A stretch of 64,000 bases of DNA from Laburnicola sp. R22_1 (Eukaryota; Ascomycota; Dothideomycetes; Pleosporales; Didymosphaeriaceae), in assembly GCA_014281115.1 (NCBI GenBank), contig JACONQ010000020.1, forward strand, positions 1,364,001 to 1,428,000. The letters run 5' to 3'. A program made the position numbers and the translations under genes. The notes below the pieces were generated by a model, which ran no database searches, had not been told where the DNA came from, and worked only from the letters and a program-made list of their open reading frames with translations. Of the stretch, positions 3,362 through 19,318 are shown in pieces (position 1 is the first letter of the stretch; each line of letters opens with the position of its first letter).

Positions 3362-5189
3362 ACCTAGATTATAAGCGAGTCGCCCTTACAAGCGAGTCGC
3401 CCACCTTGTCAACTCTCTCAGCCTTTTATAGCCTGTACATCCACAACGCAATAAAATAATATTAATATAAGAGCTGTCCTAGTTCAAGTAGTATCTACAG
3501 TACGCTTTTCACACGTTCGTGAGTTATGGCCAGTCTCTCTGCAGCGACCGCAGCGCGCTAAGGCCTGCCGGCTCGTACCTGATCGCGCCTTGCCTTGACG
3601 CGTTTCTCCCTTAAGTTGCTGCTTAACAGCCCTTTGAGTAATAATATCCTCTCCCTCTGCCTTTAATAGGGTGCCTTGCTTCTGGATCCGCTTCTTTTTG
3701 CGATTCTTGCGCGATGTGGCGGCCTCATTTGCTCTCTCAAGGCTTAAGATTCGCTCGCGCATAAGCGCCATTTAATGCATTGCTTTAGAAGAGCCTCTTT
3801 CTAGCTGATTAAGCCTCTCAATAATAGAAGCAGGTAACGAGCTCTTATGCGCGCGAATCCGCTCGCGAATCAACGTTGATTGAGCCTCTAGTTCGCGCAC
3901 ATTGCTGGGTGTTTTAGCCTCCCACACGGCCTCTGGTAGGGTTGCTGGCGACGGCGTCCTTAGCTTAACATCAAGCTTCGAGATCACTACCTCTGGATTG
4001 TGTGGGGCTAGTCTGGCGCCCTAAAAGCTTGCGCAGATATTCTCCTTTGTGATTAACTGGTCGTAGGCGGCGCGGAAGGCAGGTAGGAACTCAAGCTTGG
4101 TGATATGGTTGATATGGTCGCGTATCAGGCTCGACACTTGGCACCCGTACGCCCGCTTTAATGGCGAGAAACAGCCAACGTCTAGCGGCTGCAGGAGGTG
4201 CGACGAATGTGGCGGCATACAGAGAGTATAGATATTGTTATCCTTGCAGATTTCTTGGAATTTGAGCGACTTGTGGCTCTCATGGCTGTCAAGTATAAGC
4301 AGCTAGTGCGCGCCTACCCTACGCGCTGCTATATACTTAATAAAGTGCTGTAGCCAGGCAATACCAAGCTCGTTGGTAGTCCAACCGTTGTCACTGAGCC
4401 CAATAGTCCAGTCGCCTGGTATATCCTCGCCCTCATACCAGGCAGAGAGGTAATACTGGCCAGCGAAAATGACGAAGGGCGGGATTGCCCACCCGGCAGC
4501 GTTGATTCCATGGATCACCGTGACCCATTCGCGATTGCCTGGCTGGATTGCTTTTGGCCGGCTACGTCTCTCTGATCCCGTGACAACTAGCTGGGAGGAT
4601 ATCTTGCCCATTAGAAAGCCAGTCTCGTCGAAGTTGAAGGTGTCCTCGTCGTGGATACCGTAGGTGGCCTTCGTACGCGCTACGAGGTTAAACCAGCGTT
4701 GTATAGCTTCTGGATCCTCGCAGAGCGCTCTCTGGTGGTCGTACGGTCGATTAAACCGCGTAGTAAGGCTGTCTGTTCGCTTGACAAAGTTTCTAGGCCA
4801 CTGTTGACCGACCTGGCCACTGCCGCGCTCAGCGAGCAACTTATCCGCCATATTCCGCACAGCTTCTAGAGTAGGCGCAAACCCTCGCGAATCTAGATCA
4901 AGTATATACTCGATAATCACCTCCTCTTCTAGCTTGGTAAGCTTTCTTGAGTTGGGCTGGCAATCGCGTCGCGCAGCGTTGATCGGGGGACATTATAAGC
5001 CCGTACAGCCTCTCGTACAGTCTGAATTTGGTTCTGATTAATAGCTAGGATAGCAAGGTAGATATCTGCTTCGTTGCAGGGCAATTGAGTAGAAGTTGGT
5101 TGAGCCATTGTAGTTTGTAGGTGACGCGTCATAGAAAGTTGACGAGGTGGGCGACTCGCTTGTAAGGGCGACTCGCTTATAATCTAGGT
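3362..5189 (-). mobile_element. Pogo-like DNA transposon A (1,828 bp, complete ends)
   Basis: The ends are ~52 bp inverted repeats with one mismatch (starting ACCTAGATTATAAGCGAG at 3362 and its reverse complement ending at 5189), flanked by TA target duplications at 3360-3361 and 5190-5191. Each end contains AGCGAGTCGCCC twice with a 17 bp period. The transposase gene is on the minus strand and broken, so the copy is non-autonomous. It is closely related to elements B and C. Confidence 0.93.
3484..5108 (-). pseudogene. Pogo/Tc1-type DDE transposase of element A (decayed)
   Basis: Start ATG at 5106-5108, by alignment with the copies in B and C. Layout: N-terminal helix-turn-helix (NEADIYLAILAINQNQ region), CENP-B-like DNA-binding part, and DDE_1 catalytic core with first Asp in FNFDETGF, second in ILDSHESH and third in [10 protein letters not shown]-terminal basic coiled region ends in a CCHC knuckle, CGRCRETGHNSRTC. 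Damage: a ~23-25 bp deletion between short GCG repeats near 4965 shifts the frame relative to B. In-frame TAG occurs before LLILD (about 4300) and before GARLAP (about 4020), and TAA after AMH (3772). Most of the stops match RIP-type changes of Gln or Arg codons. Not functional. Confidence 0.9.
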
Positions 5190-8479: not shown

Positions 8480-8659
8480 TGTCACAACGCGTCCCCTGTG
8501 GCAGCGTAACCCCCTAGTTGACCTAGACTGGCCTAGATTAGCCTTGGCTAGGGAAGAGTTTTCTTCTTAGGCCTTGTAGCCTTTAGACCTACTTTCCTTT
8601 TTTAAGGGATCGCCTTAATAGTGAATTGATAGATTAAGCATTGTACCCACGATCTTACA
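8480..8659 (+). repeat. 5' LTR of the chromovirus
   Basis: 180 bp, TG...CA ends, with 179 of 180 positions identical to the 3' LTR by eye. The right third of the LTR runs close up to the gag start at 8698. Confidence 0.96.
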
Positions 8660-8697
8660 ATACGATCCCTTACCACCTTATATCTTATCATTCCAAC

Positions 8698-10077
8698 ATG
8701 AGCGACGTCCGTCGAAGCCAACGCCTGGCCTCCGTAGCCGGCCCAAGCGGAGCGACAGTAACCAGCGAGGGGCAACCTCACGCCAGCATCGAGGACCCCG
8801 GACCAGGCCAAACTGGCACGGACAAAGGACAAACAGCCTTGAGCGCTGAAGAAGCTCAGATACAACGTCAGGAAGAGGAACTTAAGCGAGAAATTGAGAT
8901 CGCGAAGAAGCGCGAGGCTATTAAAGCCTTGCAGGACCAACTCAAGATCCTGCAGGTCGAAATAGGACCCGACGATAACGAACAAAGAACCTCGACCCTT
9001 GCGACCGACGCCGAAGCCGCGACGAAGAAGGACAAGGGCAAGGGCAGGCAACTGACGCCCGAAACTATCGAAGAGGATACAAGCGACCCTGATAATAGCA
9101 GCGACTCGTTGGAGGAGCCTAGCAGCCCTGGAGAGGACTCCCCTCCGCGTAAGAAGGGCGGACGAAAGAGCAAGCGACCAAGCAAAAAGGACAGGAGGAA
9201 GCCCCTAAGGACTAGCATCGCGCCTATTGTCCCACCCCAAACGACAACAGCCAGCTTAGACCTACAACTACTAAAACCGCCAGAGCCTCCCCAATTCGAA
9301 GGAAGAGGCCGGAAGGAACTAAACGCCTGGGCAAGAGGCTGCGAAGATTACATTTAATACGCACCGGCCCTTAGCACTAATCTAGCCCAGACAAGGTTCG
9401 CACACCGCTATCTTGGGGACACGCAACGCAACTTCTGGGACAGGGTAGTCCGGGAGATCCCCGAGCGCAAACGCGAGCGTAAGGTAACGTGGAAGCTAAT
9501 GAAGCAGACTATAGTGGACACCCTAGGATCGAGCTAGGAAAGAGAACAAGAGGCTTGTCGGCGCATTAAGAACGCAAAGCAGGGTTATCGGACCCCAACT
9601 GAACTCCTAAACTATCTTAAGGATCAGTGGGAAGAGACTAACCCTGATCATGCCTTAGATGATTATGACGATCAGCACATTAGCGATTTCTTCTCCGCTC
9701 TGGACAGTTGAGTAGTGGAGAGGCTCCAATGGCAACCACAGCGGTGGACCAGCCTTATCCGACTAGAGGAGACGGCCAACTAACACTGGCGGGTCATCTA
9801 AGGGCCGAAGCTAGGCAAGCGAAAGCAAAAGGATGACGATGAGGAGGCCTAAGAGGACAACGGGCGAGGCACGACCAGCCAGAAACGATCTAGGTCAAAC
9901 GACACCAGACTAGGCCAGAGGCGCTATGACCTGCAATGTAAGGAATGGGATGAGCGTCGCAAGGCACAATCACTGCTGGACTGGGAAAAGAACAACTGTT
10001 TCTACTGTCACGAGCAAGGGCACTACAAAGACAACTGCCCAAAGCGAAAGACAGAGGCGGGAAAAGACAAGCCCTAG
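8698..10077 (+). pseudogene. gag of the chromovirus (stop-interrupted)
   Basis: ATG at 8698, 38 bp after the 5' LTR. Encodes an N-terminal acidic/basic low-complexity region with a coiled coil (EEELKREIEIAKKREAIKAL), a K/R-rich stretch (KKGGRKSKRPSKKDRRK), a capsid-like region and a CCHC zinc knuckle, CFYCHEQGHYKDNC, near 9999-10038. In-frame stops occur at 9355 and several later codons; the frame itself is conserved through the knuckle. The stops are TAA, TAG or TGA in contexts compatible with mutated Gln/Arg/Trp codons. The TAG at 10075 may be the natural end or another mutation. pol is in the +1 frame relative to gag. Confidence 0.9.
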
Positions 10078-10136
10078 GTCATCCGTCCCTCAGACCGACG
10101 GGCTCTGTCATATACACGGAGGGATAAAGATTGCTC

Positions 10137-13100
10137 GCCGCAGCCACCTTGGAGGCAAGGGGCCCCCGCAAGGCTGGAGGGTCCCTGATCGCCCTAGAAG
10201 GGGTTATCCGAACAGCAGCGGGCTCCTTCAAAGTGAGGGCCCTAGTAGACTGCGGCGCGGAGGCCAACTTCGTCAGTACCAGGATGGCGGAGAGGGTCGC
10301 AGTCTAACTAAAAGCGAATGCAAACTAGACTTACAAGGCCCTAAACGGAGTTAAATTGGAGGTTTAAGGCCAGACCAAGCTGGCCTACGCGATAACGGAC
10401 AGCCGTGGGCAAACCCGGGCTGGGTCGGACGAATTCGTCGTAGGGGACATCGAAGGGTTCGACATAGTGCTGGGGATGCCCTGGTTGACCAAATGGAACC
10501 CACTACCCAACTTCACCGCTCGTACATTGCGATTTAACAACGGCAAGCGCAAATTCCAGAAGGTCGCCATGGAGGGGCCACAACAATTCGCGAATACCGC
10601 TAAGGACGCTGACAATGACTGTTTTGTCATGTATGGAGTTAGCCTAGGCCAATCCGGTCCGAACGAGACTGTTCTACCCGAGGGTTACTGAGGGAGGTTC
10701 GAAGAAGCCTTCTTAGAAGCGGACGCCGCCCTACTGGCGGACCATGGGCCTTACGAGATGTCTATTGACATTGAGGCAGACAAGAAGGTACCCTTTGGAC
10801 CGCTCTATAGCCTGTTGGCGCCGGAGGCACAGGTCTTGAAGGAGTACATCGAGAGGAACCTCGAAAGAGGCTGGATACGCCACTCGAAATCGGAAGCAGG
10901 AGCACCGATCCTTTTCGCAAAGAAGAAGGACGGGGGATTGCGATTATGCGTAGATTACTGTGGACTGAACGCGGTGACCGTGAAAAACCGTTACCCACTC
11001 CCACTAATCCAAGAGTCACTGGACCGGTTGGGATCCGCCGTCATATACACTAAATTGGACCTGAGGGACGCCTATTACCGTATATGAATCAAGGCAGGCG
11101 ACGAATGGAAGACGGCATTCCGGACTAGATATGGCCACTACGAATACACAGTAATGCCCTTTGGGTTAACTAACGCCCCCGCGGTCTTTCAGAGCTATAT
11201 TAATAGTGCGCTGTTGGACTTACTTGACGTCTGTTGCATTGTATACTTGGACGACATCCTTATATATTCCCAGAGTGAGGAGGAACACGTTGAACACGTG
11301 AAGATAGTGCTGGATCGGCTTATCCAGCACAAGCTGTACGCCAAACTCTCCAAGTGTGAGTTCCACACCTGAGAGGTAGGCTACCTAGGGTTTGTAGTAA
11401 GCCCGGAGGGCGTGCATATGGAAGGGGATAGAGTCAAGAGCATACAGGAGTGGCCAGAGCCTAAGTTGGTATGGGATGTGAGAATTTTCCTAGGCTTTGC
11501 CAATTACTACCGAAGATTTATTAAAGGGTTTTTAAGGGTCGCAAGCCCCCTGCACGTACTCACCCAGCGACCAGAAGGGTCGGCCCGTGGTGGTCACTGA
11601 TAACGTAAGGAGGAATCGGTACCTATTGCCCTGTCAAGCGAGGCTCGGGCTGCGTTTGAGCAACTAAAGCAAAGCTTTGCTAGTGGGCCCTTGCTAGCCT
11701 ATTTTAACCCTGAATTGCCCTTGAGGGTGGAGACTGACGCCTCTGGATACGCGATATCTGGCATCTTAAGTCAACCACACCTAGGGCCCCAAGGAAAGGA
11801 ACAATGGCACCTAGTTGCCTTCTACTCGCGCAAGATGAGCCAGGCTGAGCGTAATTACGACACGCACGACGGAGAGCTGCTTGCAATAGTAGAAGCCTTT
11901 AAACACTGGAGGCACTACTTAGAAGGCACTGTAGAGCAGGTAGAGCTCCTGACAGATCATGCCAACCTACAGGGGTTCATGACAACTAAAGTCCTGACCT
12001 GACGCCAGGCCCGATGGGCTGAATGGCTTGCCTCATTCAATTTTGGGATCAGACACCGCCTAGGGAAGACAAACCTGGCGGACGGACCCTTAAGGAGGCC
12101 CGACTACGAGTTGGAAGGAGCGGAAAGGCCTGATAGGACGGATAGTTCCTAAGGAAGGCTGCTCAGAGAGCTTTAAAGTAAGCTAAAGCTTGGGGGAGCT
12201 AAAACACCCCAGGAGAGGCTGGAAGAGCCTAGGCTGGCAGCCACCGCGCGGATTGCGCGACCTGGGGAAAGACCTACCCTAGAGGATGCGCAACAAGGGG
12301 AATTCAAGAACCCTTTGCTTCAAGCCATCTCCAAAGAGATGACGAGCGACCCAACAGCGGTTAGGGTGAGGGCGAGTCTCTCGCACCCCACAGAGGATCG
12401 CCCACCGTGGATAGAGCGGTGGAGCCCAATTAAGGGTCATCTACTCCAGTTCAACGGTCGCCTGTACGTGCTGGCCGGCGTCAGGATCGAGACCTTGAGA
12501 CGCTGTTATGATGATCCGCTAGCAGGTCATTTTGGTTTCGCGAGGACACTCGATATCGTCCAGAGGGAGTTCTGGTGGCCCGGGGCCCGTCGGTTCGTTA
12601 AGGATTACGTCCTGACTTGCAAGGCCTGTGCAAGGGTTAAACCCACTAGACACGCACGGTATGGCCAACTCAACAGCTTACCGATCCCGACAGGTCCCTG
12701 GCAAGATATAACAATGGACATGATCATAGACCTCCCTGAGAGCAGGGTGCGTAACCACAAGTATGATAGTATACTGGTGATTGTAGATCGCTTTAGTAAG
12801 ATGGCCCACTATACGGCTGTTCGCAAGGACATGACCGCAGCAGAGCTGGCTGAGATCTTTTGGCGGGAGGTCATACGGCTCTATGGTCCCCTAAGGTCGA
12901 TAGTGACGGACAGGGGTAGCCTATTTACATTAGGATACTGGAGCACCTTTGCGTAGTGCTTAGGGTCAAAACGGCTGCTTTTGACCGCCTTTTACCCGCA
13001 GACGGATGGGCAGACTGAGAGGCAGAACCAGACGCTGGAGCAGTACCTACGAGTCTTCTGCAATTACGAGCAGGACAATTGGGCCTTGTTGCTATTAGAG

Positions 13101-13883
13101 GCAGAGTACTCGTACAACAACAGCGTACACAGCTCTACGGGGAAGTCGCCTTTCCAGGCCGTGTACGGATACGACCTGCCAACCACTGGCGTGGCTGAAG
13201 AACTCCACTTGAGGGGTAACGCACCTCAGGCTATCGCTGACGTGACTAGAATGGCCCAGATAAGGGCTGTCATGCGAGAAACCATGACAAAAGCCCAGGC
13301 TTACCAGGCGAAGGCATACAACTCCAAGCACAAACTGGTAGAGTTTGCTGTGGGAGACATGGTCTACCTTGATGCACGGAACCTGGCCTCGTTAAGGCCG
13401 AAAAAGAAGCTGGACTACAAGTACTGGGGTCCCTACAAAGTTCTACGCCGAGTAGGGGATCAGGCGTACGAACTAAGCCTGCCCAAGGACTTCCAGATCC
13501 ACCCAGTGTTCCACGTGTGCCTACTGGAGCGATCGGCCCTAGAGGGACTCATGCAGCGGGAGCAAAGTCCCCCCAAGGTTGTGGTACCACAAACAGGTCC
13601 AGACATATACCCAGTTGAACGGATTAAGGGTAGGACAAGAGAGAACGGCAGGTGGCTGTACGAAGTGAAGTGGAAAGGGTACGGTGACGAAGAAAACCAA
13701 TGGTTGCCAGCAGAAGACATTTCCAAGACGGCGATGAAGGCTTTCTCTAAGCGCACAGGCTTCACGGAGGACGCAAACCTGTCAGAGGTAAAGACAGGCC
13801 CTAAACAAGGCCCACAGGCCATGCAGAGGCCGGGGTCGCCCTCCAAAACAAGGAGGGGTAGAGATAACCCCAGAAAGGCCTAG
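10137..13883 (+). pseudogene. pol of the chromovirus: protease, RT, RNase H, integrase, chromodomain
   Basis: One continuous frame of ~1,249 codons broken by about 12 stops but no frameshift. Protease: ALVDCGAEANFVS (Asp-Cys-Gly instead of the usual Asp-Ser/Thr-Gly) followed by DIVLGMPWL. Reverse transcriptase: [20 protein letters not shown] and the catalytic YLDDILIYS. RNase H: VETDASGYAISGILSQ and LLTDHANL. Integrase: zinc-binding HxxxxH...CxxC (AGHFG...CKACAR), then the DDE residues in MDMIIDLP, VTDRGSLF and TERQNQTLEQYLR. The C-terminal chromodomain (YPVERIKG...YEVKWKGYG...NQWLPAEDI, about 13610-13740) places it among chromoviruses, which target histone-marked chromatin. The stop at 12954-12956 lies between the second catalytic Asp and the Glu. 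Confidence 0.95.
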
Positions 13884-14269
13884 ATTGGCCTAGACTAGCC
13901 CTAGCAGGTACACAGGCAAGCAATAGTACGCAATCGCGGACTCTGAGAAGTAATAGTGTTGTGAAACAGGCAAAAATACCGTCACAAACATGCAATATAA
14001 AGGATTATGAGAGCAAAGCACAGAAAAGCTTCTCTACCAAGAACCTAAACTAATCGGCGTCCAAGATCCATGAACCAGGGAGCCGAGCACGAACAAGCCC
14101 AATCAAGGCCAAACTAGGCCGAAGCTACGTCTCTAGACCCATAAACAAGGCCAAACAAGGCCCTTAGCCCCTCCCGAAAGCCAAAGGGAGGCAGCAAACG
14201 CTAAAAGGGGGTATCTCAGACTAGGAAAACGCCAGAAAGGGCCAAACAGGCCTAGAAAGCCCAAGGATC

Positions 14270-15291
14270 CTAATCCCAGGTGCGCACCTGCTGCCACAAC
14301 GACTCGAAATCCCTCTTCGCACGCTCCGAAGCCTTGGAACCCGGCCGCACCCTCTCAACTAGGAAGTCTAACGCGTCCTCGAGCGCACTCAAGCGAGCCT
14401 GACATTGGTTAGCCTAGATTACCCTAGATAGGGCTTGGGAAGTTTAGATTACCTCAACAGCAGAGAGATCAGCATTGCCCACCGCCTTACCTCCACCTCT
14501 AGCCCGCTTACGCGGGGTACCCGCGAGACCGCCCGCGTCATCATCCGCCGAACGCTTCCGATTCTTCTTGGCCTCAGCCTTCTCCTTCTCGGTGAGCCCA
14601 AGGGGAAGGAAGCCGTCAGTGGGAAAGTTGGCCCGGCCGGAGTGCAGCGGAGTGTCCTCGTTGCCAGCGTACTTGCCCTTGGTACGGCTACCCCAAAATT
14701 AGCCTTGGGAGGCCTTGATAGGCCTAGATAGGAGAAACTTACATTTGGATATCCTCAAAGACCTTCCGCAACTGGATGGAAGCCTCCTTAAGGGGAGGCA
14801 AGATAGGCCGGGGGCCTCGGAACCCTCGGGGACCTCAGGAATCTCCTTCAACGCCCTCACGTCCAATTCGGCCTCAGTGAGATGAAGGCTGCTGGGATCC
14901 GGGAGGATGAGCTTCATGGCGGCCTGGAGCTTGGAGACAAGACGCTGGGGAACCTAAACACGTTAGGGGGCCCTTGAGAACCCTAGAGAGGCCTAGATAT
15001 GCCTAGGTTGGCCCTACTCACCTGGAAACAATCCCGACCGGCGTTAGCGCACTTGACGCACTTGAGTATGAGATCGTCCTGGCCAGGGTCGATGACGCCA
15101 TCCGAGATGTAGGTCTTGCGGTCCTGTAGAGCTCTGTGGTCCTCTTGGAAGAACCGGCAAGGATGAACTTCCTCAACTTCGTCATCATGGAGCTCGTCCA
15201 CCAGACTCTGGAGGCAGGTTATGCAGGGGTTCGTTGTAATAAGTGCATTGTCCTGGGCCGTTTTCTTCAACCTCTGCAAAGTACCGGACAT
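14270..15291 (-). CDS. Antisense four-exon gene inside the chromovirus (unrecognised, Cys-cluster nuclear-type protein)
   Basis: Minus-strand model: exons 15291-15022, 14953-14743, 14687-14453 and 14398-14270. Introns are 68, 55 and 54 bp, with GTGAGT, GTAAGT and GTAATC donors, CTAAC/CTAAT branch sites and TAG, TAG and CAG acceptors. Exon 1 is exactly 90 codons, exon 4 is 43 codons including TAG, and phases match throughout except for one apparent base missing in the CCCCC run of exon 2 (near 14810). With that base the protein would be ~281 aa. Exon 1 has five cysteines (C23, C26, C45, C78, C81) plus C88 in CVKCANAGRDC, a possible metal site. Exon 3 is Lys/Arg-rich (KKNRKRS, TPRKRARGGGK) like a nuclear localisation signal, and exon 4 is helical. 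Not assigned to any family. It has no in-frame stop apart from the indel effect, whereas gag-pol has about 19. Its 5' end lies 456 bp from the 3' LTR. Confidence 0.72.
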
Positions 15292-15731
15292 CTTGATGAG
15301 GGTGAGATAGGGCTAGATGGGCCTAGATCGGGCTTGACTGGGGCCGAGGCTGTTCCGAGGAGGTTAAATGGGTCGAAAAAAGGATTGGGCGACGTCGAAG
15401 CGGACTGTCAAGCGTCGTTAGCTCTAGACAAGCCTAGATGGGTATGGGGGACCCCCACAGGCCCGAGAAAACCCCAGATTGGGGGTGTTTTGGCCTAGAA
15501 GGGGCCTAGATCACCCTAGATTACCCTTGTCGGAGCCTGCTAGGAGCGCCTATCCCGGGGGTACTTACGCTAGAATAAGTGGCGACGTGGGGAGAGTGGG
15601 GAGAAGAGGTGATGGAGCGGCAGGGCTGGGGGTAAACTTATAAAGGTACGCTAGTCCAAAATAGGCTAGTTAAGCGAGCTTAGCTAGCCTATTTAGAAAA
15701 TTTCTCTGGCGACCTCGGGGTCGAGGTCCTT

Positions 15732-15746
15732 TAAAGAAAGGGAGCT
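15732..15746 (+). other. Polypurine tract of the chromovirus
   Basis: AAAGAAAGGGAGC lies directly upstream of the 3' LTR, the expected primer site for plus-strand DNA synthesis. Confidence 0.75.
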
Positions 15747-15747
15747 T

Positions 15748-15927
15748 TGTCACAACGCGTCCCCTGTGGCAGCGTAACCCCCTAGTTGACCTAGACTGGC
15801 CTAGATTAGCCTTGGCTAGGGCAGAGTTTTCTTCTTAGGCCTTGTAGCCTTTAGACCTACTTTCCTTTTTTAAGGGATCGCCTTAATAGTGAATTGATAG
15901 ATTAAGCATTGTACCCACGATCTTACA
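15748..15927 (+). repeat. 3' LTR of the chromovirus
   Basis: 180 bp copy of the 5' LTR, followed by the TTAGT target duplication at 15928-15932. Confidence 0.96.
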
Positions 15928-17467: not shown

Positions 17468-19318
17468 ACGTGTTTACAAGCGAGCCGCGCGTACAAGTGA
17501 GCCGCGCGCCCCACCAACTTTCTACAACGCGTCTTATACAAACTACAATGGCTCAACTATTGTCTGCTTAATTGCGCTATAAAGAAGCAAATATCTACCT
17601 AGCTCTTTCAGCTATTAATTCCAGTCAAATACGAAGTATAAAACGCGCTGCCGCAACGTTTTGCGTCCCTGAAACAACACTTCGCGGCCGACGCGCAGGA
17701 ATCGCTGCGCGACGCGACTCTGAGCCCAAATCAAAGAAGCTTACCAAGCTTGAAGAGGAGGTGATTGTTGAGCATATACTTGACCTAGATTCGCGAGGCT
17801 TTGCGCCCACTCTAGGTGCTATACGAGATATGGCGAATAAGCTGCTCACTGAGCGCAGCGCAGGCCACGTTGGCCAGCAGTGGCCTAGGAACTTTGTCAA
17901 GCGAACAGACAGCCTCACAACGCGATTTAATCGACCCTACGATCGACAGCGAGCCCTCTGCGAGGACCCGACGGTTATACAGGCCTGGTTTGAGCTAGTA
18001 GCACGTACAAAGGCCACCTACGGTATCTGCGACGAGGATACCTTCAACTTCGACGAGACTGGCTTTCTAATGGGTAAAATATCCTCCCAGCTAGTCGTTA
18101 CTGGCTCAGAGAGGCGTGGCCGGCCAAAAGCGATCCAGCCAGGCAATCGTGAGTGGGTGACGGCGATCCACGGAATCAACGCTACTGGGTGGGCAATCCC
18201 GCCCTTTATCATCTTCGCTGGCCAGTACCACCTCTCTGCCTGGTACGAGGGCGACGATATACCAGGTGACTGGGCTATTGGTCTTAGCGACAATGGCTGG
18301 ACTACGAACGAGCTTGGTGTTGCCTGGCTACGGCATTTTATTAAGCATACAGTAGAGCGTAGAGTGGGCGCGCGTCAGCTACTAATACTTGACGGCTATA
18401 AGAGTCACAACTCGCTCGAATTCCAGGAGATCTGCAAGGAGAATAAGATCTACACTCTCTGTATGCCGCCACATTCGTCACACCTTCTGCAGCCGCTTAA
18501 CGTTGGCTGTTTCTCGCCGTTGAAGCGGGCGTACGGGCGCCAGGTCGAGGGCCTAATACGCGACCACATCAACCATATCACCAAGCTTGAGTTCCTACCA
18601 GCCTTCCACGCCGCCTACGACCAGTCAATTATAAAGGAGAATATCTGCGCAAGCTTTTAAGGCGCTAGGCTAGTCCCACACGATCCAGAGGCGGTGATAT
18701 TAAAGCTTGATGTGAAGCTTCGTACGCCGTCGCCAGCAGCCCTACCAGAGGCCCTATGGGAGTCTGCAACACCAAGCAACGCGCGCGAGCTAGGCGCTCA
18801 GTCAACTCTAGTTCGTAAGCGGATCCAAAGGCATCAAGGATCCTCTCCTACATCAGTTATCCAGTCGCTTAATCGGCTTACAAGAGGGGCTGAGAGAATG
18901 GCGCATTCGATGGTGCTTATGCGCGATAAGATAGCTAGTCTACAGAGGGCAAATAAGGCAGCCACAACGCGTAAACAGCGCAAAAAGAAGCGGATCTAGA
19001 AGCGAGGCACCCTATTAAAGGCAGAGGGAGAGGATATTATTGCTCAGAAGGCTATTGAGCAGCAACTAGAGGGAGAAACGCGGTATAGCCAGGCGCGGTC
19101 AGGTGCGAGCCGGCAGGCTTCAGCGCGCTGCACGCGCTGCAGGGAGCCTGGGCACAACTCACGTACGTGCAAGAAAGCTTCTATAGATACTGCTTGATTT
19201 AGGATAGCTATTATATTAATAGAATTTTAATGCGTTGTTGATATACAGCCTGCAAAAGGCTGAGAGACTTGGTGGGGCGCGCGGCTCACTTGTACGCGCG
19301 GCTCGCTTGTAAACACGT
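17468..19318 (+). mobile_element. Pogo-like DNA transposon B (1,851 bp, complete)
   Basis: The terminal inverted repeats are at least 50 bp and identical by eye, starting ACGTGTTTACAAGCGAGCC. TA duplications lie at 17466-17467 and 19319-19320. Each end carries the AAGYGAGCCGCGCG motif twice, 17 bp apart. The identical ends suggest recent mobility, but the transposase has three stops. The right TA is also the left TA of element C. Confidence 0.95.
17548..19197 (+). pseudogene. Pogo-type DDE transposase of element B (three stops, no frameshift)
   Basis: 549-codon frame from ATG 17548 to TGA 19197. The N-terminal HTH spans ~residues 10-55 (EANIYLALSAINSSQ), and a CENP-B-like domain runs to ~150. 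The DDE_1 core has FNFDETGF, LILDGYKSH and LLQPLNVGCF (the third Asp is read as Asn, GAC to AAC, so the active site is also lost). The C-terminal coiled, basic tail carries a CCHC knuckle, CTRCREPGHNSRTC. Stops: TAA at codon 8, TAA at 18658-18660 (element C has CGA there) and TAG at 18997-18999. All fit C-to-T or G-to-A change. Confidence 0.93.

What the first reader, a model, noticed from the sequence alone, without database searches (positions are those of the whole stretch)
14270..15291. Intron-bearing antisense gene carried inside an LTR retrotransposon
Between pol and the 3' LTR, on the opposite strand, four exons with three short fungal introns fit together. All donors, branch sites and acceptors are canonical, the exon phases close, and exon 1 and exon 4 are whole numbers of codons. 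Only one base in a C-run of exon 2 has to be assumed lost. Antisense introns survive reverse transcription of the genomic RNA, so a gene in this orientation can travel with the element. It has no RIP-type stop in ~281 codons, against about 19 stops in ~1,700 codons of gag-pol (suggestive, not proof of selection). The product has a Cys cluster and an NLS-like basic stretch, compatible with a nuclear regulator of the element or the host. I recognise no family.
Basis: partly seen in the sequence, partly recalled or inferred. Interest (0 to 1): 0.9.

Follow-up and report, generated by a model that had tools for sequence, protein, structure and literature searches.

The report
Antisense spliced gene in fungal retrotransposon
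A jumping element in a fungal genome carries, on its opposite strand, a small gene interrupted by three introns, and those introns and most of the element's other non-coding stretches hold short ten-base repeats that may be landing sites for a protein, possibly the one this gene encodes.

Summary
Window 8480-15927 is a chromodomain Ty3/gypsy element. Between pol and the 3' LTR, on the minus strand, lies a four-exon, three-intron gene of 281 codons. The window copy is frame-broken in exon 2, but 2 of 31 aligned copies carry the frame open unchanged. A gene-model search returns the same 846-nt model in those two; 0 of 3,000 shuffles reach it. All 31 copies keep all three introns, so copies pass through the sense RNA.

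New here: a degenerate 10-bp unit (about GGCCTAGATA) recurs in same-strand register in the three introns, the pol-to-gene gap and a likely 5'UTR intron, with two units in the LTR; its core word is absent from the gene's exons. This resembles the non-coding targets of Arabidopsis VANC anti-silencing proteins. Best reading: an element-encoded nuclear regulator, possibly binding these repeats. Binding and expression are untested. Antisense genes at this place are known (Boty brtn, plant Grande and Retand): a new variant of a known kind.

The parts
8480..15927 (+). Ty3/gypsy chromodomain LTR retrotransposon, 7448 bp, target duplication TTAGT
   Evidence: LTR ends and TSD; chromodomain and SH3_Tf2-1 Pfam hits
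8480..8659 (+). 5' LTR, 180 bp; two motif units 10 bp apart at 8522 and 8532
8698..10077 (+). gag, broken by 6 stops in this copy
   Evidence: gag end TAG in 20 of 20 copies with sequence there
10128..13883 (+). pol (limits approximate; SH3 and chromodomain at its end), broken by 12 stops in this copy
13884..14269 (.). gap between pol and the antisense gene; 10-bp repeats (units at 13879, 13889, 14251); probable antisense 3' UTR
   Evidence: lag-10 z 3.9, 0 of 2000 shuffles; positions; 3' UTR is inference
15022..15291 (-). antisense gene exon 1 (90 codons): Cys at 23, 26, 45 and CX2CX6C at 78-88
14954..15021 (-). intron 1, 68 nt, made largely of 10-bp repeats
14743..14953 (-). exon 2, frame-broken in the window copy; the frame is open in natural copies
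14688..14742 (-). intron 2, 55 nt, 10-bp repeats
14453..14687 (-). exon 3: basic NLS-like region
14399..14452 (-). intron 3, 54 nt, 10-bp repeats
14270..14398 (-). exon 4 (43 codons with stop): most of the Leu/Val heptad helix
15407..15568 (-). putative 5' UTR intron: GTAAGT donor 15568, CTAAC branch 15421, CAG acceptor; 10-bp repeats
   Evidence: splicing not shown
15637..15642 (-). TATAAG, candidate promoter element of the antisense gene, followed by a C/T-rich leader
   Evidence: function inferred
15748..15927 (+). 3' LTR; motif units at 15790 and 15800

Best explanation
The feature is a real protein-coding gene belonging to the retrotransposon, transcribed antisense from its own promoter inside the element and spliced (three coding introns, probably one 5' UTR intron). 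Because the introns lie antisense, reverse transcription of the sense genomic RNA keeps them. The 281-residue product (Cys-rich N-terminal region, basic NLS-like stretch, short heptad helix) most likely enters the nucleus and regulates the element. The step that I infer with least certainty is that it recognises the 10-bp unit repeated through the element's introns, gap and 5' UTR and present as two units in the LTR, so that it can raise, damp or de-silence its own family without touching host genes. Shown: gene model, intron retention, the repeats, and that their paired form is nearly confined to this family in this genome. Inferred: expression, nuclear entry, DNA binding, direction of regulation.
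For: Gene model not reached in 3,000 shuffles and returned by the model search in two natural copies. Coding signal highest in the gene's own frame (0.096 per codon against 0.006 for the next best of the five others) on codon frequencies learned from the window's gag-pol. 31 of 31 aligned copies keep the introns. TATAAG, GTAAGT, CTAAC upstream. CCTAGA 14 times in 1,237 non-coding nt against 3 in 5,981 coding nt; opposite orientation 0 and 1. Lag-10 periodicity in the introns, gap and putative 5' UTR intron reached by 0-1 of 2,000 shuffles, in the four exons by 72-1,009. Paired motif 106 times genome-wide against 1 for the reversed control; 97 of the 100 listed places lie within 1 kb of a copy or relic of this gene. 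Heptad window reached by 1 of 500 shuffles; basic stretch about 201-222.
Against: No RNA or protein data. No detectable relative or domain, so no cross-species conservation. No sign of purifying selection among copies; a phase test for old RIP showed no depletion of synonymous CpA in the exons. The exon 1 structure model is uninformative (pLDDT 46.8). The LTR has the motif twice but no 10-bp periodicity overall (783 of 2,000 shuffles reach it), nor has the part upstream of the 5' UTR donor (703), while gag and pol are slightly periodic themselves (11 of 300 shuffles reach each). The motif matrix trained on the introns beat all shuffles in only one of five held-out non-coding segments. Copies of one element are not independent evidence. 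The motif was found by eye, after the fact.
Confidence: 0.5

Rival explanations
1. The antisense transcript works as RNA: it pairs with the sense genomic RNA, feeds small-RNA silencing or damps the element, and the protein is incidental.
For: Antisense transcription as a silencing device is discussed for plant elements (PMC7264820). The gene is antisense and has its own candidate promoter.
Against: An RNA role would not need an open frame, coding bias and phase-closing introns. The gene lies outside gag-pol, so its RNA would pair only with the last part of the genomic RNA (inference from the coordinates).
Confidence: 0.2
2. A host gene captured with its introns and promoter in antisense orientation, now a passenger without a role in the element.
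For: Complete eukaryotic gene anatomy; no relative at 10 copies of other chromoviruses of this genome.
Against: Searches of this genome with exons 1, 2 and 3 found copies of this family and RIP-damaged relics, no free host gene (only the best 48-52 candidates were scored, so a weak host relative could be missed). The introns carry the same 10-bp repeats as the rest of the element's non-coding DNA, which suggests remodelling within the element (inference).
Confidence: 0.15
3. The 10-bp repeats have nothing to do with the protein: they are slippage products tolerated only where nothing is coded, or sense-RNA signals (packaging, dimerisation, export).
For: All 14 non-coding CCTAGA words are on the plus strand, as expected for an RNA signal or for one expanded array. 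Tandem repeats of unknown function near antisense ORFs are frequent in plant Retand (PMC11963269).
Against: Two units sit in the LTR upstream of the inferred transcript start, and units keep a 10-bp spacing within separate segments, close to one helical turn, which suits protein binding to duplex DNA (inference). Intron lengths are constant in 31 of 31 aligned copies, so there is no sign of ongoing slippage.
Confidence: 0.35
4. A chance open frame: the exons only look like a gene.
For: 29 of 31 aligned copies are broken and no relative was found.
Against: 0 of 3,000 shuffles, 0 of 156 other strand-windows, coding bias in frame, and the repeat content changes at the predicted exon-intron borders.
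Confidence: 0.03

Closest known systems
brtn of Boty-like elements (Botrytis cinerea, Zhao et al. 2011, known here by title and citations only)
   Same: Additional antisense gene in a fungal Ty3/gypsy element; [quoted passage not shown] a Boty-like gag-pol with chromodomain beside brtn is described in PMC4227169 (passage); a Monilinia transcript resembles Pol and BRTN (PMC5987419, passage)
   Different: No sequence of BRTN could be compared (paper not held); whether brtn has introns or repeat-filled non-coding DNA was not seen
Antisense genes of plant Grande (gene23), RIRE2 and Retand (TRP28 domain)
   Same: Antisense ORFs between pol and 3' LTR; gene23 product nuclear and transcribed from a promoter upstream of the gene; Retand often with tandem repeats in the same region (PMC7264820, two of three parts read; PMC11963269 abstract and passages)
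   Different: Retand are not chromoviruses; no TRP28 (PF04195) hit here. The word intron occurs 0 times in the main text of PMC11963269. Here the repeat unit is 10 bp and fills the introns
VANC proteins of Arabidopsis VANDAL transposons
   Same: TE-encoded protein; short motifs, often in tandem repeats, in introns, intergenic and terminal non-coding parts of its own TE (PMC5735166, first part of the Results and the section on target evolution read; PMC10398659 abstract)
   Different: Different element class (VANDAL transposons with a transposase, VANA); proven binding and loss of methylation; VANC repeats vary in number between copies, here intron lengths do not; no domain in common detected
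HBZ and APH-2 of HTLV
   Same: Spliced antisense gene near the 3' end encoding a nuclear regulator that inhibits LTR activation; HBZ has a basic leucine zipper, APH-2 has no consensus bZIP (PMC3185765 passages)
   Different: Those transcripts start in the 3' LTR; here a TATAAG lies inside the internal region (inferred promoter); no bZIP domain hit; different virus family

Membership tests
Chromovirus (Ty3/gypsy with chromodomain) | Chromodomain at the integrase C terminus | tested here: met
   PF00385 E 8.1e-10 and PF24626 E 6.3e-20 in 12957-13883
Chromovirus (Ty3/gypsy with chromodomain) | LTRs and 5-bp target duplication | tested here: met
   TTAGT on both sides, 180-bp LTRs
[quoted passage not shown]
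   gene region in 40 scored copies, 38 of 40 beside pol, frame open in 2 of 31
[quoted passage not shown]
   no RNA data
brtn family | Sequence homology to BRTN | not testable with these tools
   paper not held, BRTN sequence not available
Retand / TRP28 | TRP28 domain PF04195 | tested here: not met
   0 Pfam families at E up to 10 for the L018 protein
VANC anti-silencing proteins | Short motif repeated in the TE's own non-coding regions, introns included | tested here: met
VANC anti-silencing proteins | Protein binds that motif | not testable with these tools
   needs EMSA or DAP-seq
VANC anti-silencing proteins | VANC protein domains (DUF1985, DUF287; named) | tested here: not met
   no Pfam hit
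Zn2Cys6 fungal transcription factors | CX2CX6CX5-12CX2CX6-8C (motif recalled) | tested here: not met
   Cys at 23, 26, 45, 78, 81, 88: spacing differs in the first half and the linker; no Pfam hit
bZIP (HBZ kind) | bZIP domain | tested here: not met
   no Pfam hit; only a short heptad run behind a basic stretch

The most novel reading that the evidence does not exclude
A self-addressing LTR retrotransposon: its antisense, spliced gene encodes a sequence-specific DNA-binding protein whose targets are the 10-bp units that fill the element's introns, gap and 5' UTR, with two in the LTR, letting the family find and de-silence or regulate its own copies, as VANC proteins do for VANDAL transposons, but evolved independently in a fungal chromovirus under RIP.
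Probability: 0.27. Interest if true: 0.87.

Novelty: new variant of a known kind. Interest (0 to 1): 0.6.

Why it matters
[quoted passage not shown] Here the gene comes with a candidate DNA address repeated in the element's own introns, gap and LTR, which turns 'what does the antisense gene do' into one binding assay. If true, sequence-specific self-recognition by a TE-encoded protein arose in a retrotransposon as well as in plant VANDAL transposons. The case also shows that an antisense gene can keep several introns through repeated retrotransposition.

Tried and rejected
Selection on copies: not testable here. Differences of the 30 other aligned copies from the window copy are nearly all C>T or G>A (0-4 transversions per copy) and RIP hits synonymous and non-synonymous sites alike. 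A phase-resolved test for old RIP with purifying selection in the master lineage gave no support: CpA at codon position 3|1 is not depleted (1.20 and 1.24 of expectation), so I also doubt RIP as the source of the CTAG-rich repeats.

Inherited gag-pol stops (family moved in trans with dead gag-pol): not adopted, but not excluded. Of the window's 18 gag-pol stops, 12 occur in half or fewer of the sister copies with sequence there and 6 in more than half; the one at 10365 is in 17 of 19. Recurrent RIP at favoured sites or partial inheritance would both give this. No copy examined has an open gag-pol: 8 to 77 stops in the 20 copies covered over at least 0.81 of it, 7 in L022, covered over 0.33.

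Relatives elsewhere: protein database with the 281-aa protein, 1,524 candidates, none at E up to 10; exon 1 alone, no candidate; plasmids; viral contigs, 24 pattern matches, no relative; Pfam, none for the whole protein and one weak hit for exon 3 alone (YrzK, E 0.15, below its cut-off); PDB, one hit at E 1.2. The database has no close relative even for the integrase (best-ranked match 49% identity, 120 of 569 listed), so absence is weak evidence. Structure prediction of exon 1: uninformative. A survey of other fungi was not possible: apart from the window's own genome the whole-genome tool holds prokaryotes.

Full report
Setting. The window lies in a 63.9-Mb assembly of 26 contigs; that it is a fungus I infer from the RIP pattern, the intron type and the element. 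Window 8480-15927 is an LTR retrotransposon of 7,448 bp with 180-bp LTRs, 5-bp target duplication TTAGT and an integrase followed by SH3_Tf2-1 and chromodomains, hence a chromovirus. gag ends at 10075 in 20 of 20 copies with sequence there; the pol frame is offset by one base. A 10-nt stretch just after the 5' LTR (8663-8672) is complementary to LTR 8603-8612, which suggests Tf1-type self-priming (type recalled).

The gene. Between pol and the 3' LTR, on the minus strand, four exons (15291-15022, 14953-14743, 14687-14453, 14398-14270) and introns of 68, 55 and 54 nt form one reading frame. In the window copy exon 2 is frame-broken. The genome search scored 40 copies, the window's included; I aligned 31 of them (the window, 20 long and 10 short loci). 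Of the 31, 24 have an exon sum divisible by three and 2, L015 and L018, have no internal stop. So the inferred frame exists in nature.

More than chance. A search for the longest ATG-to-stop model with up to four introns (45-90 nt, loose donor, branch motif and acceptor) returns exactly this 846-nt model in L015 and L018. Dinucleotide shuffles of L015 do not reach it (0 of 300), nor do shuffles of L018 (0 of 3,000, mean 169, maximum 588); neither do 19 antisense windows of the gag-pol part (maximum 471) nor 156 strand-windows sampled from the rest of the 64 kb. Codon frequencies learned from the window's gag-pol score the gene's own frame highest (0.096 per codon; next best of the five others 0.006); by single exons the signal is weak for E1 (0.02 against 0.01) and negative though best for E4 (-0.04). 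Branch motifs CTRAY are in 31 of 31 copies for each intron; GT donors in 31, 22 and 28 of 31; AG acceptors in 31 of 31 throughout.

Mobility with introns. All 31 aligned copies keep the three introns at full length. Of 21 copies examined for LTRs, 17 gave both LTRs and 12 of these have an exact 5-bp target duplication, each different. They are therefore separate insertions made from the sense RNA, in which antisense introns are not removed (inference). 38 of the 40 gene copies have the pol SH3 domain at the expected place and strand; C2:1205131 and C13:636595 do not.

Upstream. Antisense to the element, 351 nt upstream of the start codon, is TATAAG (15642), then a C/T-rich leader, a GTAAGT donor (15568), a CTAAC branch motif (15421) and a CAG acceptor, compatible with a 5' UTR intron. 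Of 20 sister copies, 19 keep TATAAG and GTAAGT (L014 lacks that stretch) and 20 keep CTAAC; the acceptor reads CAG in 17 and TAG in 3. Promoter and splicing are inferred.

Selection. It is explained otherwise. The window copy shows 3 RIP events at 111 RIP-able sites of the gene, against 64 at 661 in gag-pol; summed from the region table of the same call, gag-pol hits fall on plus-strand C (58 of 400) far more than on minus-strand C (6 of 266), and plus-strand C>T rarely makes stops in an antisense frame. The gene, read in L015, has only 16 stop-prone codons of 281. In 8 of 21 copies the RIP rate in the gene equals or exceeds that in gag-pol. Over the 31 copies synonymous sites are hit at 0.367, non-synonymous at 0.410. 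A test for RIP in the ancestry with purifying selection was negative. Selection is neither shown nor excluded; cross-species relatives are needed. Some of the window's gag-pol stops are widely shared (6 of 18 in more than half of the sister copies), so partial inheritance of dead gag-pol is not excluded.

The 10-bp repeats. The word CCTAGA occurs 14 times in 1,237 non-coding nt of the element and 3 times in 5,981 coding nt; its reverse complement 0 and 1 times. It is absent from the four exons. Occurrences lie 10 bp apart: 8522/8532 in the LTR, 13879/13889 at the pol end and gap, 14413/14423 in intron 3, 14982/14992 in intron 1, 15505/15515 in the putative 5' UTR intron, where a further one at 15494 is 11 bp away. 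Base identity at lag 10 is 0.50-0.52 in the three introns (reached by 0, 1 and 1 of 2,000 shuffles), 0.37 in the gap (0 of 2,000), 0.39 in the putative 5' UTR intron (0 of 2,000), 0.40 in the second 5' UTR part (14 of 2,000). In the four exons 72 to 1,009 of 2,000 shuffles reach the value; the LTR (783 of 2,000) and the part 15569-15747 (703) are not periodic; gag and pol are slightly so (11 of 300 each). A matrix trained on the introns (about GGCCTAGATA) gave 5 hits in the putative 5' UTR intron (100 shuffles, maximum 4), but in the LTR, gap, second 5' UTR part and 15569-15747 the hits (4, 2, 2, 3) do not exceed the shuffle maxima (5, 4, 2, 4). Genome-wide the pair GCCTAGANNNNCCTAGA occurs 106 times, the reversed control once; 100 places are listed and 97 lie within 1 kb of a copy or relic of this gene, at a few fixed sites. 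These counts show that the pair is not a general feature of the genome; copies of one element are not independent. I found the motif by eye after the gene was defined, so the tests are post hoc.

The protein. 281 residues; Cys at 23, 26, 45, 78, 81, 88; basic stretch about 201-222; a heptad window at 232-252 reached by 1 of 500 shuffles of the protein (L018). No Pfam family for the whole protein, no credible PDB relative (one hit at E 1.2), none among 1,524 candidates of a 5.8-billion protein set. That set has no close relative of the integrase either (best-ranked match 49% identity).

Reading. The parsimonious view is an accessory regulatory gene of the element, like the antisense genes of plant Grande and Retand and brtn of Boty, whose functions are open. 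What is added here is a repeated candidate address in the element's non-coding DNA. VANC21 of Arabidopsis is concentrated in introns, intergenic and terminal non-coding parts of its own TE, on a nine-base motif often in tandem repeats (PMC5735166). The layout here is similar, the protein and the element class are not. HBZ of HTLV is the other functional parallel: antisense, spliced, nuclear, acting on the LTR (PMC3185765 passages). I found no earlier report of a multi-intron antisense gene with repeat-filled introns in a fungal LTR element in searches, whose listings were in part capped and of which I read few papers; the Boty paper itself was not held, so this is no proof of absence.

Noticed in passing
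window 8603-8612 and 8663-8672: LTR TAAGGGATCG is complementary to CGATCCCTTA just after the 5' LTR: likely Tf1-type self-priming instead of a tRNA primer (type recalled).
   Followed up: partly
window 9954-10077: gag and pol frames overlap with a -1 offset in copies without RIP stops there; gag TAG at 10075 in 20 of 20 copies. A frameshift is likely but no slippery site was looked for.
   Followed up: no
window 8698-13883: RIP in this copy is strongly strand-biased: plus-strand C 58 of 400 sites, minus-strand C 6 of 266 (summed).
   Followed up: partly
window 10365: A gag-pol stop of the window copy is present in 17 of 19 sister copies, and no copy examined has an open gag-pol (8-77 stops in the 20 well-covered copies): possible mobilisation in trans or a RIP hot spot.
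   Followed up: partly
window 17572-18660 and 4000-4978: A 362-aa open frame that looks like a DDE transposase; 17703-18681 is 86% complementary to 4000-4978, an inverted second copy (name from reading the sequence, not searched).
   Followed up: no
L039, L048: Loci of other chromovirus copies with pogo/Fot1-like transposase frames downstream (name recalled, not searched).
   Followed up: no
G000:C24:224895-236432: A copy of this family seems split by an insertion of about 10 kb: gene pieces at 224934-225654 and 235730, motif at 236415.
   Followed up: no
G000:C2:116611, G000:C9:2190159, G000:C21:853464: Three paired 10-bp motifs with no copy of the antisense gene within 1 kb; the last may be a displaced part of the nearby copy L014; not examined.
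   Followed up: no
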